Assembly (NCBI GenBank): GCA_023441125.1
Contig: JAEZQV010000098.1
Location: 1 to 5,868, forward strand
DNA: 5,868 bases
Direction of reading: 5' to 3'
DNA from: Bacillota bacterium
GTDB lineage: Bacteria; Bacillota_C; Negativicutes; Sporomusales; Sporomusaceae
Shown piece after piece: positions 4,105-5,850 of the stretch. The notes under the pieces were generated by a model. That model had not been told where the DNA came from and did not search any database. It worked only from the letters and a program-made list of their open reading frames with translations. Made by a program: the position numbers and the translations under genes. Position 1 is the stretch's first letter. Each line of letters begins with the position of its first letter.

Positions 4105-4135
4105 TTTATCACGATCAGTACATAGCCATTGTCAA
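4105..4135 (-). promoter_or_regulatory. Candidate minus-strand promoter in the tatA downstream spacer
   Basis: A perfect TTGACA (-35) lies at 4130-4135 on the minus strand, with GATAAA at 4105-4110 as the nearest -10-like hexamer; the spacing of 19 is long. No coding frame follows, only the minus-strand-competent terminator at 3867-3916. The -35 box is next to the T run of the 4137-4166 terminator, so the match may be accidental. Confidence 0.3.
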
Positions 4136-4136
4136 G

Positions 4137-4166
4137 AAAATAGCATGCCAATCAGCATGCTATTTT
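4137..4166. terminator. Perfect bidirectional intrinsic terminator
   Basis: AAAATAGCATGC (4137-4148) and GCATGCTATTTT (4155-4166) form a perfect 12-base-pair stem with the 6-base loop CAATCA. A/T runs at both ends make it usable in both directions. It lies between plus-strand tatA and the minus-strand DUF1659 cassette, which converge here, and is the most likely end of the cassette transcript. Confidence 0.85.
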
Positions 4167-4197
4167 TCTAAACTAATATCAACTTAGCACAGCTTTT

Positions 4198-4256
4198 CTC
4201 TTTGGTCGGTCGAGCTTCCGCAACCAAAGATAGTTCCTTTAGAACCTAGCTCTTTT
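4198..4256 (-). other. Structured 3' region of the DUF1659 cassette transcript
   Basis: Directly after the last stop codon, the minus strand reads GAGCT, a 5-pair hairpin (GGTTC/GAACT), then a 10-pair bulged hairpin (CTTTGGT and CGG pairing with CCG and ACCAAAG) whose 8-base loop AAGCTCGA contains AGCTC. That loop segment is the exact complement of the leading GAGCT, so a pseudoknot is possible. One G-T pair counts only on the minus strand. On the plus strand the same DNA ends in AGCTC plus six T residues, so a plus-strand terminator reading is also open. Function unknown. Confidence 0.4.
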
Positions 4257-4397
4257 TTACCGTTCCGTTGGCAGTGGAACCATGTTCTCGTCGCGCTCGG
4301 CCACGTTTTCTTCCCTGATACCTTCTTCCTGTCCTAACTCTATATCCTCGATCCGCTCGGCATCAGCCGGCGGGGGACCATATACGGTTTTAATCAT
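4257..4397 (-). CDS. Small acidic hypothetical protein, fourth gene of the DUF1659 cassette
   Basis: The ATG at 4397 opens a 46-residue frame ending in TAA at 4257-4259. It overlaps the end of yvrJ by eight bases (ATGATTAA), which suggests translational coupling; GGAGG at 4410-4414 is 12 bases upstream. The product is strongly acidic (13 Asp/Glu against 5 Lys/Arg), with no cysteine and no membrane segment. It begins MIKTVYGPPPADAERIED, continues with a likely charged helix (QEEGIREENVAERDEN) and ends MVPLPTER. I recognise no family. The overlap, the frame running right to the structured 3' region, and the non-random composition argue that it is real. It could interact with the basic face of the YvrJ tail or simply be a cassette-specific accessory (inference). 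Confidence 0.55.
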   Translation of the reverse strand: MIKTVYGPPPADAERIEDIELGQEEGIREENVAERDENMVPLPTER

Positions 4398-4551
4398 GAT
4401 CTTGTCTGCCCTCCATCCTCTCGACGCAATAACACATCTGATTGATTGCGTCGGTTAATTCGGTCAAACGTTTTTCCAGTCGAATCAACAGGAAGAAGGC
4501 CACTACCATGGGAAAACCGTATGTTGCCGTTAGACGGGCCAGTTCTTCCAT
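4390..4551 (-). CDS. yvrJ: YvrJ family small membrane protein
   Basis: The product has 53 residues, from the ATG at 4551 to the TAA at 4390-4392. AGGAGG lies eight bases upstream. It starts MEELARLTATYGFP, followed by a single hydrophobic span (MVVAFFLLI, about 15-23), then RLEKRLTELTDAI, an amphipathic helix, and a tail with two cysteines (MCYCVERMEG, Cys40 and Cys42). The YGFPxxVAxxLLxRLExRLxxL pattern is that of the YvrJ family, of unknown function and found in spore-forming Firmicutes. The design (short outside segment, one membrane helix, charged cytoplasmic helix) resembles BhlA/UviB-type holin-like proteins. It begins 22 bases after the DUF2922 stop and overlaps the next small gene, so it belongs to the same transcript. 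The family call is strong; any pore or holin role is inference. Confidence 0.85.
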   Translation of the reverse strand: MEELARLTATYGFPMVVAFFLLIRLEKRLTELTDAINQMCYCVERMEGRQDHD

Positions 4552-4573
4552 TCGTAGGGCCTCCTCTCATTTA

Positions 4574-4798
4574 CTAAGCCAGCTCGGTAATCGCCAACTG
4601 CCTGATTTGCGCTTCTTTGGCAGTCACCAGCTCACCGCTGTTACTGGAAAAGACATTTTTGTCAATAATGGTGGTCATCACCGCCTGCACTTCGGCCAGC
4701 GTCAGGCCGTCTCTCGGTTCCTTGACCGCCACAGTAACCTCCTTGCCGCCGGAAGTGGCAAAGATCATTTCCAGTGTTCTGGTATTGGTATCGGCCAT
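4574..4798 (-). CDS. DUF2922 domain protein
   Basis: The product has 74 residues, from the ATG at 4798 to the TAG at 4574-4576, with a second stop (TAA) immediately behind. An in-frame ATG at 4822 is rejected because the perfect ribosome site AAAGGAGGA falls inside that extension, seven bases before the chosen ATG. The sequence fits the DUF2922 family: a first strand RTLEMIFATSGGKEVTVAV, a turn KEPRDGLT, a helix TLAEVQAVMTTIIDKNVF, then SGELVTAKEAQIRQLAITEL. It is soluble, with no signal peptide or membrane segment. It follows DUF1659 after 37 bases, the usual pairing of these two families in Firmicutes. Function is unknown; constant pairing with DUF1659 suggests that the two products act together (inference). 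Confidence 0.9.
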   Translation of the reverse strand: MADTNTRTLEMIFATSGGKEVTVAVKEPRDGLTLAEVQAVMTTIIDKNVFSSNSGELVTAKEAQIRQLAITELA

Positions 4799-4835
4799 GG
4801 GTAATCCTCCTTTCCGCTTCATCTGCTCTTGTCAC

Positions 4836-5057
4836 TTACTGATTGACCAGACTGGCATTGTCTTCCCGGGCAATATCTGCCACCGGATAGATTTGCAGTC
4901 CCGCCAGCGCCTGCGCCACATCAAATAAATCCTGATCGGATGCCGTCGGTTTGCCGGTATAATTCCGGGTAACATAGGCCGGACTACCGGCTGCATTCAC
5001 ACCCTTTTGCAGCTTGATGGCGATGGTGCTGCTTTGCGGCATTTTTACTACAGCCAT
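4836..5057 (-). CDS. DUF1659 domain protein
   Basis: The product has 73 residues and is the first gene of the cassette. The ATG at 5057 is preceded by an excellent ribosome site (AAAGGAGGT, eight bases upstream). The sequence is typical of DUF1659: STIAIKLQKGVNAAGSPAYV, then a TRNYTGKPTASDQDLFDVAQ segment and ALAGLQIYPVADIAREDNASL. There is no membrane segment and no signal peptide, so it is probably a small cytoplasmic beta-alpha-beta protein. Function is unknown. The gene is driven by a near-consensus promoter at 5217-5245 through a structured leader (5093-5196), so expression of the whole cassette may be controlled at the RNA level. Strand order and helix placement resemble its neighbour DUF2922, so the pair may share ancestry or assemble together (inference). 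Confidence 0.92.
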   Translation of the reverse strand: MAVVKMPQSSTIAIKLQKGVNAAGSPAYVTRNYTGKPTASDQDLFDVAQALAGLQIYPVADIAREDNASLVNQ

Positions 5058-5092
5058 TGCTTATACCTCCTTTCTTGGTATTCCCACGCAAA

Positions 5093-5116
5093 AGGCACAC
5101 CCCGGGAGGTGTGCCT
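5093..5116 (-). terminator. Terminator-like hairpin in the DUF1659 leader
   Basis: On the minus strand AGGCACACC and GGTGTGCCT form nine base pairs around the 6-base loop TCCCGG, followed by only four T residues before GCG. It lies between the large leader hairpin and the ribosome site, the usual place of a riboswitch expression platform. The short T run makes it a weak or conditional terminator. Its left arm and loop also contain ACCTCC, complementary to the gene's own ribosome site. Confidence 0.55.
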
Positions 5117-5117
5117 G

Positions 5118-5197
5118 CTGCGCCTGGAACGGATTATGACAAGCGCGGCCCATTATTGGCCACGCGGGTCACCTATCTTTCGCCCGTTCCAGGAGCG
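5118..5197 (-). ncRNA. Long structured 5' leader element of the DUF1659 cassette (unassigned)
   Basis: On the minus strand CCTGGAACGG (5184-5193) pairs perfectly with CCGTTCCAGG (5123-5132); after one mismatch, two more pairs extend the outside. Inside, TGAC/GTCA (5168-5171 with 5137-5140), a CC/TT internal loop, and an 8-pair stem GCGTGGCC/GGCCGCGC (5158-5165 with 5143-5150) close a 7-base loop. A large asymmetric internal loop (12 bases GCGAAAGATAGG against 4) separates the outer and middle stems. The one imperfect pair in the inner stem is G-U only in the minus-strand RNA, which fits transcription from the promoter at 5217. I could not match it to any riboswitch class I know, nor to T-box, SRP or 6S RNA. 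Confidence 0.6.
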
Positions 5198-5216
5198 TAT
5201 ATTTCATTATGTAGTT

Positions 5217-5245
5217 ATTATAACAACAAAATGAAATATTGTAAA
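5217..5245 (-). promoter_or_regulatory. Sigma-A promoter of the DUF1659 cassette
   Basis: On the minus strand TTTACA (5240-5245) and a consensus TATAAT (5217-5222) are separated by exactly 17 bases, and TGT just before TATAAT adds an extended -10. This is the best promoter in the window. Transcription should begin near 5210, giving a leader of about 150 bases before the DUF1659 ATG. Confidence 0.85.
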
Positions 5246-5301
5246 TACCTTGCCGCAAAATATTTTTAATCCGAGCTTACTGCCATTACTCTTAGTACAA
5301 A

Positions 5302-5850
5302 TTAGAATAATTCCTGCTGCGCAAAATATGTATCAATCGCTTCAGCAATCGCCAATGCCGCCCCCAGTTGCCAGGCATATTCTGTTAGAACTTGCCGGTC
5401 TGCTTCATTTGAAATAAATGCAACCTCCACTAATACGGCCGGGCAAGCCGTTTCTCTTAGTACCTGAAAATTCGCTTCACGAATCCCCAGGTCAACAGTA
5501 TCTAATTCTGTTACCAGTTTGGCTTGAATAAGCCCGGCTAACCGTTTTCCCGGCGCACTCCCCGGATAATAATAAGTTTCCGTTCCGCGGGCAGCGGTAT
5601 TCACCGTACTATTAGCATGAATGCTGACAAAAAGATCCGCTTGCTTCGTATTCGCCAGTTCCGCTCGGAAGTTCAGATCATCCGTTTCGATCGCACCGTT
5701 CCGGGTAAGCAATACTTCATACCCTTGTTCATACAACTGCTCAGCCAATAACTTGGCAATATCCATCACTACATTGCACTCGTATACCCCGCCGGCGCAG
5801 GCGCCTGGTTCCACCGGCCCCGAATGACCGGGATCAACGATAATTTTCAT
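5302..5850 (-). CDS. N-acetylmuramoyl-L-alanine amidase (Amidase_3 family), catalytic domain only
   Basis: The gene is complete: the ATG at 5850 has AGGAGG nine bases upstream, and TAA lies at 5302-5304. The 182-residue product is a bare Amidase_3 catalytic domain, a zinc enzyme that cuts the bond between N-acetylmuramic acid and L-alanine in peptidoglycan. Zinc ligands are visible as His9 (IVDPGHSG), Glu24 (GGVYECNVV) and His78 (LFVSIHANS), and the catalytic Glu142 is in PAVLVEVAFISNEAD. RGTETYYYPG and the REANFQVLRET strand are also typical. There is no signal peptide, membrane anchor or wall-binding repeat, unlike housekeeping LytC/CwlD-type enzymes, so it is either cytoplasmic until released, as phage endolysins are, or exported by another route. 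It precedes the DUF1659 cassette by 244 bases on the same strand with no clear terminator between, so partial read-through is possible. Confidence 0.93.
   Translation of the reverse strand: MKIIVDPGHSGPVEPGACAGGVYECNVVMDIAKLLAEQLYEQGYEVLLTRNGAIETDDLNFRAELANTKQADLFVSIHANSTVNTAARGTETYYYPGSAPGKRLAGLIQAKLVTELDTVDLGIREANFQVLRETACPAVLVEVAFISNEADRQVLTEYAWQLGAALAIAEAIDTYFAQQELF

What the first reader, a model, noticed from the sequence alone, without database searches (positions are those of the whole stretch)
5093..5222. Unassigned structured leader RNA with riboswitch-like architecture ahead of DUF1659-DUF2922-YvrJ
A near-consensus promoter, a roughly 75-base interrupted hairpin with a 10-pair perfect outer stem and a large asymmetric internal loop, a terminator-like hairpin and a strong ribosome site follow each other in order. 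The single wobble in the inner stem is G-U only in the transcribed strand. I cannot match it to a known riboswitch class, and the controlled genes have no known function, so the ligand or factor could reveal what the cassette does.
Basis: partly seen in the sequence, partly recalled or inferred. Interest (0 to 1): 0.7.

Follow-up and report, generated by a model that had tools for sequence, protein, structure and literature searches.

The report
Leader RNA of a mobile element
A folded RNA that matches no catalogued family sits at the front of a phage-like gene set in Sporomusa-type bacteria, in relatives carried by small jumping DNA elements; its shape is kept while its letters change, so it probably controls whether a lysis-like gene set is read, but what it responds to is unknown.

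Summary
The minus strand at 5245-5055 reads promoter, 75-nt interrupted hairpin (P1-P2-P3), second hairpin (HP2), ribosome site, DUF1659. No Rfam 15 family matches. I found 20 distinct leaders of six sequence types (window plus 12 genomes) that fold alike and precede a terminator-like hairpin. P1 and P2 differ between types yet pair within each. A model of type 2 alone recovers one type-3 and two of four type-1 leaders, at modest scores. Other sampled DUF1659 upstream regions lack it: 0 of 59 and 0 of 17.

Two points change the reading. First, in 9 of 10 relatives' contexts an integrase lies near, with repressor-, xis- and replication-like genes, SSB, an endolysin-like amidase and holin-like YvrJ; the leader promoter shares a motif with the element's early promoter. 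Second, a ligand riboswitch is not supported: no competing fold frees HP2 in eight leaders, and little beyond AUA is shared in the loops.

Most likely it is an attenuator or antiterminator-type leader of a late, lysis-like operon; termination and its relief are inferred.

The parts
5302..5850 (-). Amidase_3, no signal peptide seen by eye; PHROG endolysin family in the close relative L079
   Evidence: Pfam PF01520 E 1.3e-46; the L079 homologue hits phrog_435 endolysin 2.1e-45
5217..5245 (-). promoter TTTACA-17-TATAAT, TG before the -10
   Evidence: best promoter-like site before the other 19 leaders (no shuffle control there)
5201..5239 (.). palindrome over the promoter, half-sites ATATTTCATTTTG / CATAATGAAATAT: possible operator of the element's repressor
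   Evidence: motif TACAWAATGNAAT 8-9 bases from the start of the -10 in 11 of 12 type-1 leader promoters and 9 bases in 6 of 7 early promoters, at most 1 mismatch; motif chosen after seeing them; binding is inferred
5183..5196 (-). P1, 5' strand (GCUCCUGGAACGGG)
5168..5172 (-). P2, 5' strand (GUGAC)
5158..5165 (-). P3, 5' strand
5143..5150 (-). P3, 3' strand
5136..5140 (-). P2, 3' strand (GUCAU)
5135..5137 (-). AUA directly 3' of the P2 core triplet, shared by all 20 leaders (its first two letters pair in type 1); it was used to recognise some of them
5120..5133 (-). P1, 3' strand
5094..5116 (-). HP2, terminator-like hairpin; its base can extend with CGCA 5119-5122 and UGCG 5087-5090
   Evidence: (A-U to G-C change in 2 of 12)
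5090..5093 (-). U4 tract after HP2
   Evidence: sequence
5066..5073 (-). Shine-Dalgarno AAAGGAGG
   Evidence: sequence
4836..5057 (-). DUF1659
   Evidence: PF07872 E 7.7e-20
4574..4798 (-). DUF2922 (start MADTNT as in relatives)
   Evidence: PF11148 E 1.9e-22
4390..4551 (-). YvrJ, holin-like
   Evidence: PF12841 E 2.8e-14; phrog_4898 holin E 1.7e-7
4257..4397 (-). 46-aa ORF; similar ORFs (MIKTVYGPPPADAERIE...) in relatives

Best explanation
A new family of cis-acting leader RNA. It is made from the (probably repressor-controlled) late promoter of a small, about 6 kb, integrative, phage-like element and precedes an operon that includes a holin-like protein. The nascent RNA folds at once into two neighbouring hairpins: the interrupted P1-P2-P3 hairpin and HP2, an intrinsic-terminator-type hairpin. 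By default HP2 stops, or strongly reduces, transcription, which keeps the lysis-like operon quiet when the promoter leaks or upstream genes are read through. P1-P2-P3 is the recognition domain that lets RNA polymerase pass HP2 when the element is induced: either directly, in the way HK022 put RNA acts on polymerase, or through a protein. Shown here by sequence: the fold, its conservation, its place between promoter and operon, the terminator-type hairpin, the element context in relatives and the shared promoter motif. Inferred: that termination occurs, that P1-P2-P3 relieves it, what it binds, repressor binding, and that the operon lyses cells.
For: Fold conserved: in 12 type-1 leaders 407 of 414 cells (98.3%) are standard pairs; eight pairs vary on one side and two on both; G-U in the transcribed strand is a variant at nine pairs, A-C (the wobble of the other strand) at one. 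Six types differ in P1 and P2 yet pair within type; exchanging P1 strands between types leaves on average 4.80 of 9 pairs, at most 8. A model from type 2 alone finds L054, type 3 (24.2 bits, E 0.0025), and two of the four type-1 leaders offered (19.9 and 19.0 bits, E 0.023 and 0.036) at the right place and strand. The best promoter-like site matches 10 or more of 12 in 18 of 20 leaders and 9 in the other two, 20-71 nt before P1. HP2 is in the lowest-energy fold of 8 of 8 leaders and stays when P1 is held open. In L018 a group II intron (Rfam matches) seems to begin right after the T-run of HP2 (start read by eye); bacterial-C introns are reported to insert just after intrinsic terminators (PMC8919778, passages), though this intron's class was not determined. 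Integrase in 9 of 10 contexts, a tRNA within about 130 bases of it in 6 of those 9. Endolysin and holin PHROG matches. Shared motif at late and early promoters.
Against: Type 1, the window's own type, has only U4 before GCG, and the scan did not call HP2 a terminator. HP2's sequence in type 1 is almost invariant (7 of 9 pairs never vary), which a plain terminator would not need. The scores by which R2 finds other types are no higher than those of the antisense strands of its own members (19.5-26.4 bits), and it misses L003, L045, L115, L117 and the window. Type 1 alone does not prove covariation: 30 of 500 shuffles reach the number of pairs changed on both sides. No transcript data. The operon is short (about 1 kb), so processive antitermination is not obviously needed. 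Few genomes have it: type 1 in 7 of 300, type 2 in 2 of 379. In one genome (L063) the leader is intact though DUF1659 is broken.
Confidence: 0.5

Rival explanations
1. Put-like RNA in the strict sense: the two hairpins together bind RNA polymerase without any other factor and make it resistant to pausing or termination; HP2 is part of the element and not a terminator.
For: Two stem-loops next to each other (0-1 nt apart in the folds of types 1, 3, 4, 5 and 6), about 110 nt in all, shortly after a promoter; HP2 extends past its U-tract in several types. HK022 put is about 70 nt, two stem-loops, putL just after PL (PMC9378689, passages).
Against: U-runs at or shortly after HP2 in all eight leaders folded, an intron behind one leader, and 5-8 nt between P1 and the HP2 stem proper in type 2. 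No homology test with put sequences was made.
Confidence: 0.2
2. Ligand-binding transcription riboswitch.
For: Structured domain followed by a terminator-type hairpin; in type 2 the P1 3' strand (CCCC) could pair with GGG(G) of HP2 (by eye).
Against: No competing fold in 8 of 8; P1 opening costs 7.6-22.7 kcal/mol, and HP2 forms either way. Loop letters are hardly conserved between types. I saw no such match in types 1 and 4 (by eye).
Confidence: 0.1
3. Stable 5' structure that protects the mRNA or insulates it, with no switching.
For: P1-P2-P3 lies 20-71 nt from the -10 box, close to the expected 5' end, and is very stable.
Against: Does not explain the kept P2 and AUA, nor a terminator-type HP2 in every type.
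Confidence: 0.13
4. Short terminated RNA acting in trans, for instance immunity between copies as with satellite P4 CI RNA (recalled, not tested).
For: Several copies per genome (type 1: one to three; five leaders in G005); the leader ends in a terminator-type hairpin; an intact leader persists beside a broken DUF1659 (L063).
Against: Apical loops vary; no target was looked for. Full-length leaders found lie on the operon's own strand in front of it.
Confidence: 0.1
5. A DNA feature (cruciform, replication or integration site) and not an RNA.
For: It sits in an integrative element with SSB and a replication-like gene.
Against: G-U in the transcribed strand is a variant at nine pairs, A-C at one; the antisense strand scores 19-34 bits against 78-98 with model R1; it lies 20-71 nt after a promoter-like site.
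Confidence: 0.04

Closest known systems
HK022 put RNA (antiterminator)
   Same: Two stem-loops soon after a phage promoter in a mobile element (PMC9378689, passages)
   Different: put is an antiterminator; here the second hairpin looks like a terminator. No sequence relation to put was tested
Tn916 canT and pLS20 conAn2 antiterminator RNAs
   Same: cis RNA at the head of an operon of a Gram-positive mobile element whose terminators guard its genes (PMC11658703, PMC8955417, passages)
   Different: canT fragments active in antitermination are 341-452 nt with a complex predicted fold; conAn2 has a protein partner, ConAn1; I saw no description of this hairpin in either
Transcription-terminating riboswitches
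   Same: Structured domain, then a terminator-type hairpin, then the gene
   Different: No mutually exclusive pairing found, no large conserved core, no Rfam match
Phage holin-endolysin cassettes (phrog_4898, phrog_435)
   Same: Endolysin-like amidase and holin-like YvrJ close together
   Different: DUF1659 and DUF2922 between them, and this leader in front

Membership tests
Any Rfam 15 family | Covariance-model match at the leader | tested here: not met
   No match overlapping 5050-5222 at E up to 10; none at the leaders of L001, L002, L003, L005, L006, L018, L020, L021, L024 at E up to 5. Types 3-6 were not scanned
Transcription riboswitch | Mutually exclusive structures between the sensing domain and the terminator | tested here: not met
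   8 of 8 leaders keep HP2 with P1 held open and show no antiterminator in the truncated transcript; energy model only
Transcription riboswitch | Conserved ligand-binding core across diverged members | tested here: not met
   Between six types the loops share little more than AUA at the 3' side of P2
Transcription riboswitch | Specific metabolite or ion binding | not testable with these tools
   needs in-line probing
HK022 put antiterminator | Two adjacent stem-loops soon after a phage promoter | tested here: met
   by architecture only, with a spacer in type 2
HK022 put antiterminator | Sequence and structure homology to put RNAs | not tested
   no put sequence was fetched
HK022 put antiterminator | Binding to the beta' zinc-binding domain and relief of termination | not testable with these tools
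   -
Intrinsic terminator (HP2) | GC-rich hairpin directly followed by a U-rich tract | tested here: inconclusive
   Window: 10-pair hairpin and U4, not called by the scan; types 2-6 have U3-U7 after the stem or, in L054, four bases later
Phage-satellite or other integrative element | Integrase, repressor and replication-type genes around the cassette | tested here: met
   Of 10 relatives' contexts: integrase 9, HTH_3 repressor-like 7, xis-like 7, replication-like 8, by crude ORF calling; names from one or two representatives. Not testable in the window, which ends at the amidase
Phage-satellite or other integrative element | Flanking att repeats; helper dependence | tested here: inconclusive
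   No repeat of 14 bases or more between the two sides except in L081, which has no integrase; a 9-mer in four loci is weak; helper not testable

The most novel reading that the evidence does not exclude
A new RNA-only (or RNA-led) antiterminator family: a nascent 110-nt RNA with a P2-AUA core that modifies RNA polymerase, used by a family of 6-kb lysis-carrying integrative elements in Negativicutes, not described in anything I searched, to open a repressor- and terminator-locked DUF1659-DUF2922-holin operon.
Probability: 0.25. Interest if true: 0.78.

Novelty: new variant of a known kind. Interest (0 to 1): 0.55.

Why it matters
It adds a leader RNA family, supported by different sequences that keep the same pairing, which Rfam 15 does not hold, tied to one kind of integrative element. 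It also gives a handle on DUF1659 and DUF2922: in these elements they lie between an endolysin-like and a holin-like gene, under a motif shared with the element's early promoter. The RNA is short, and its default state (terminate or pass) can be tested in one in vitro transcription experiment.

Tried and rejected
Known RNA family: rejected. Leader peptide: an ATG-to-TGA frame exists in the window, L002 and L003 but not in L001, L005 or L036, read by eye; rejected. Occurrence in phages: a DNA pattern in the viral contigs gave 2 stretches, both chance matches on reading; DUF1659 in viral contigs: 49 stretches matched a pattern, none confirmed; window 4250-5300 against phage and plasmid records 0. 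Clear attachment repeats: not found. MAFFT alignment of types 1 and 2 together put P1 or P2 out of register, so no model was built from it. The six-type census is a hand comparison whose rows I cut at the ends of P1, so its full P1 pairing is by construction, and AUA was part of the pattern used there; only the exchange control, the scans with their shuffles and model R2 count as tests, and R2's cross-type scores lie in the range of its members' antisense strands. Diverged leaders are only partly recovered by models: R1 gives 14.3 bits for L021 and 8.0 for L020; R2 misses the window, L003, L045, L115 and L117. The P2 exchange control is weak (2.07 of 3). The first motif scan missed L062. The promoter search and the LexA-box count had no shuffle control. 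Fold search for DUF1659 and DUF2922: no significant hit (best E 0.035 and 0.11). Searches outside the class: R1 in 4 genomes, 0; R2 in 113 genomes, 0; neither had a positive control there.

A script error copied L074 under the name L075; L075 (G003) was left out of the context counts, and 'of 10' means L073, L074 and L076-L083, of which L074 and L083 are nearly identical.

Full report
WHAT IS IN THE SEQUENCE. On the minus strand the window carries an Amidase_3 gene (5302-5850), a promoter (TTTACA-17-TATAAT, 5245-5217), a leader, and then DUF1659, DUF2922, YvrJ and a 46-aa frame. No Rfam 15 family matches there at E up to 10. The terminator scan, which wants five T in eight, did not call HP2.

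IT IS CONSERVED. DUF1659 homologues (74 proteins) led to 29 loci in genome contigs. A leader almost identical in P1, P2 and HP2, with a changing P3, stands before DUF1659 in Propionispora, Sporomusa silvacetica, Pelosinus propionicus and Sporomusa sp. KB1. A covariance model of eight of them (R1) found it in 7 of 300 genomes of the class: 12 full copies, 11 before an intact DUF1659 and one (L063) before a broken one, besides one truncated copy and one antisense row. In the order searches it was in 5 of 28 and 1 of 10 genomes. In the alignment of 12 distinct type-1 leaders, 407 of 414 cells are standard pairs. Eight pairs vary on one side and two on both, one of them in HP2 (A-U to G-C in two sequences); G-U in the transcribed strand is a variant at nine pairs, A-C at one. 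Against the shuffle control, 2 of 500 shuffles reach the percentage paired, 2 of 500 the covariation score and 2 of 500 the cells changed on both sides, but 30 of 500 reach the number of pairs changed on both sides and 200 of 500 the number of pair types. Type 1 alone is too uniform to prove the fold.

SIX TYPES SUPPORT IT. A Sporomusaceae MAG (G005) has a differently spelled leader of the same build in front of its DUF1659 copies (L018, L020, L021, L024). R1 finds L021 with E 0.0015 in 354 bases and L020 only weakly, E 0.063. A scan for P1 plus the motif TG[CT]CAT in 548 kb of held loci found the known leaders except L062, and one new one, L087 (3 hits in three shuffles of the set). Reading upstream regions and the stretch between amidase and DUF1659 elsewhere gave L054, L045, L115 and L117. 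In all there are 20 distinct leaders of six types in 12 genomes and the window. Each folds on its own into P1-P2-P3 with small local differences, and AUA lies directly 3' of the P2 core triplet (AUA was part of the search pattern). P2 core pairs read are GAC/GUC, GAU/GUC, GGC/GCC, GGU/GCC, GGC/GCU, GGU/ACC, GCU/AGC and GCU/AGU. Swapping P1 strands between types leaves 4.80 of 9 pairs on average (max 8), against 9 of 9 within types (the rows were cut at P1, so the 9 of 9 is by construction). A model built from type 2 only (R2) recovers L054 (24.2 bits, E 0.0025), L001 (19.9) and L006 (19.0) at the right place and strand in 51 kb, but misses the window, L003, L045, L115 and L117; the antisense strands of its own members score 19.5-26.4 bits, so part of this is the long stem alone. 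R2 in the class: 2 of 379 genomes, five hits, all before DUF1659, one of them with an intron in between. HP2-like hairpins follow in type 1 and in the other leaders. The best promoter-like site lies 20-71 nt before P1 in all 20, with 10 or more of 12 matches in 18, and all 20 have an AAGGAG ribosome site (no shuffle control).

IT BELONGS TO ONE KIND OF DUF1659 OPERON. PF07872 is found in 285 of 380 genomes of the class. A relaxed scan of upstream regions found no leader in 59 of 59 other loci (L140-L198, part of the listed matches, L177 only 222 bases) nor in 17 of 17 (L088-L105 without L100, which is the leader locus L115 again); shuffles gave 2 in 1200. Among L007-L029 it found L020, L021 and L024 only (in L018 the leader lies beyond the 350 bases searched because of the intron), and among L030-L057 13 of 28, all known leader loci. 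Three of the four upstream genes of leaderless chromosomal operons that I read were given to Pfam, and all three are sigma-70-like.

THE ELEMENT. I fetched up to 20 kb around eleven leaders and analysed ten (one was lost to a script error). An integrase lies near in 9 of 10; crude ORF calling found the HTH_3 repressor-like gene in 7, the HTH_17 xis-like gene in 7 and the replication-like gene in 8. The order is integrase and repressor on one strand, then xis-like, replication-like, SSB, amidase, leader and DUF1659 operon on the other. Names rest on one or two representatives: Phage_integrase, HTH_3, HTH_17, SSB, Amidase_3 and PHROG matches, the replication-like one weak (5.4e-4). A tRNA lies within about 130 bases of the integrase in 6 of the 9. 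The amidase is closest to endolysins (phrog_435, 2.1e-45), YvrJ to a holin family (phrog_4898, 1.7e-7). Type 1 has 1-3 copies per genome, and G005 holds five leaders. There are no clear attachment repeats. The window itself ends at the amidase, so for it the element is inferred from synteny.

THE PROMOTER. It lies in a palindrome. The 3' half, TACAWAATGNAAT, begins 8-9 bases from the start of the -10 box in 11 of 12 type-1 leader promoters and 9 bases from it in 6 of 7 promoters between the repressor-like and xis-like genes, with at most one mismatch (58 of 2000 shuffled stretches reach two mismatches or fewer). The motif was chosen after seeing these sequences, and some copies are close relatives. 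I take it as the operator of the element's repressor; binding is not shown. In 12 of 23 loci of L007-L029, mostly Desulfotomaculia-type by record title, the DUF1659 gene instead has a LexA-like box GAAC-N4-GTTY within 300 bases, against 0 of 6 in L001-L006 (the box is recalled knowledge, no shuffle control).

HOW IT MAY WORK. A U-run follows HP2 in all eight leaders folded, in L054 four bases later. In L018 a group II intron seems to start right behind the T-run (by eye). That is where bacterial-C introns are reported to insert, after intrinsic terminators (PMC8919778, passages); the class of this intron was not determined. A riboswitch would need an alternative pairing that frees or blocks HP2. 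I found none: with P1's 5' strand held single, HP2 still forms in 8 of 8, P1 costs 7.6-22.7 kcal/mol to open, and before HP2's 3' arm is made its 5' arm pairs at most weakly and locally. The letters shared in the loops are, in my judgement, too few for an aptamer of the usual kind. What remains is a constitutive fold that a protein or RNA polymerase itself reads, next to a terminator-type hairpin. The nearest described parallels I found are HK022 put, Tn916 canT and pLS20 conAn2 (PMC9378689, PMC11658703, PMC8955417; passages). The biological sense would be a double lock, repressor and terminator, on genes that look like a lysis set. Termination, its relief and lysis are all inferred.

PROTEINS AND PAPERS. 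AlphaFold models of DUF1659 (pLDDT 89.7) and DUF2922 (86.0) show the same strand-strand-helix-strand order. Foldseek finds nothing significant in the PDB, and no solved sequence relative of DUF1659 was found at E up to 1. In the open library one paper names DUF1659 and none DUF2922 (search listing), and five contain the word YvrJ (search listing). A search for structured-RNA papers naming Negativicutes listed three (listing only), which I did not read.

Noticed in passing
L007, L008, L009, L010, L013, L014, L015, L017, L019, L022, L023, L025, within 300 nt upstream of DUF1659: LexA-like boxes GAAC-N4-GTTY before DUF1659 in 12 of 23 loci: the operon looks SOS-controlled in another lineage.
   Followed up: partly
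L030, L050, L101, gene just upstream of DUF1659: Chromosomal DUF1659-DUF2922 operons without the leader follow a sigma-70-like gene (3 of 3 given to Pfam).
   Followed up: partly
window 4836-5057 and 4577-4798: DUF1659 and DUF2922 are predicted to share a strand-strand-helix-strand order and may be paralogues or partners.
   Followed up: partly
L018, about 1030-2930: A group II intron sits between leader and DUF1659 and seems to start directly after the terminator T-run.
   Followed up: partly
L063: The leader, HP2 and promoter are intact although the DUF1659 gene behind them is broken.
   Followed up: no
L004 around 2850-2930: The 5' half of the leader is missing; the start of an SSB-like frame runs into its P3.
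   Followed up: no
L007, L019, L023, L025 upstream of DUF1659: A different long GC-rich interrupted hairpin follows the LexA-like box (by eye); the leader scan does not find it.
   Followed up: no
L139 and L136: Amidases close to the window's (66-68% identical) without a DUF1659 match in the 4-5 kb fetched; in L136 a cobalamin-riboswitch-like stretch follows (by eye).
   Followed up: no
window 4131-4170: Perfect inverted repeat AAAATAGCATGC...GCATGCTATTTT between the DUF operon and tatA, terminator-like in both directions (by eye).
   Followed up: no
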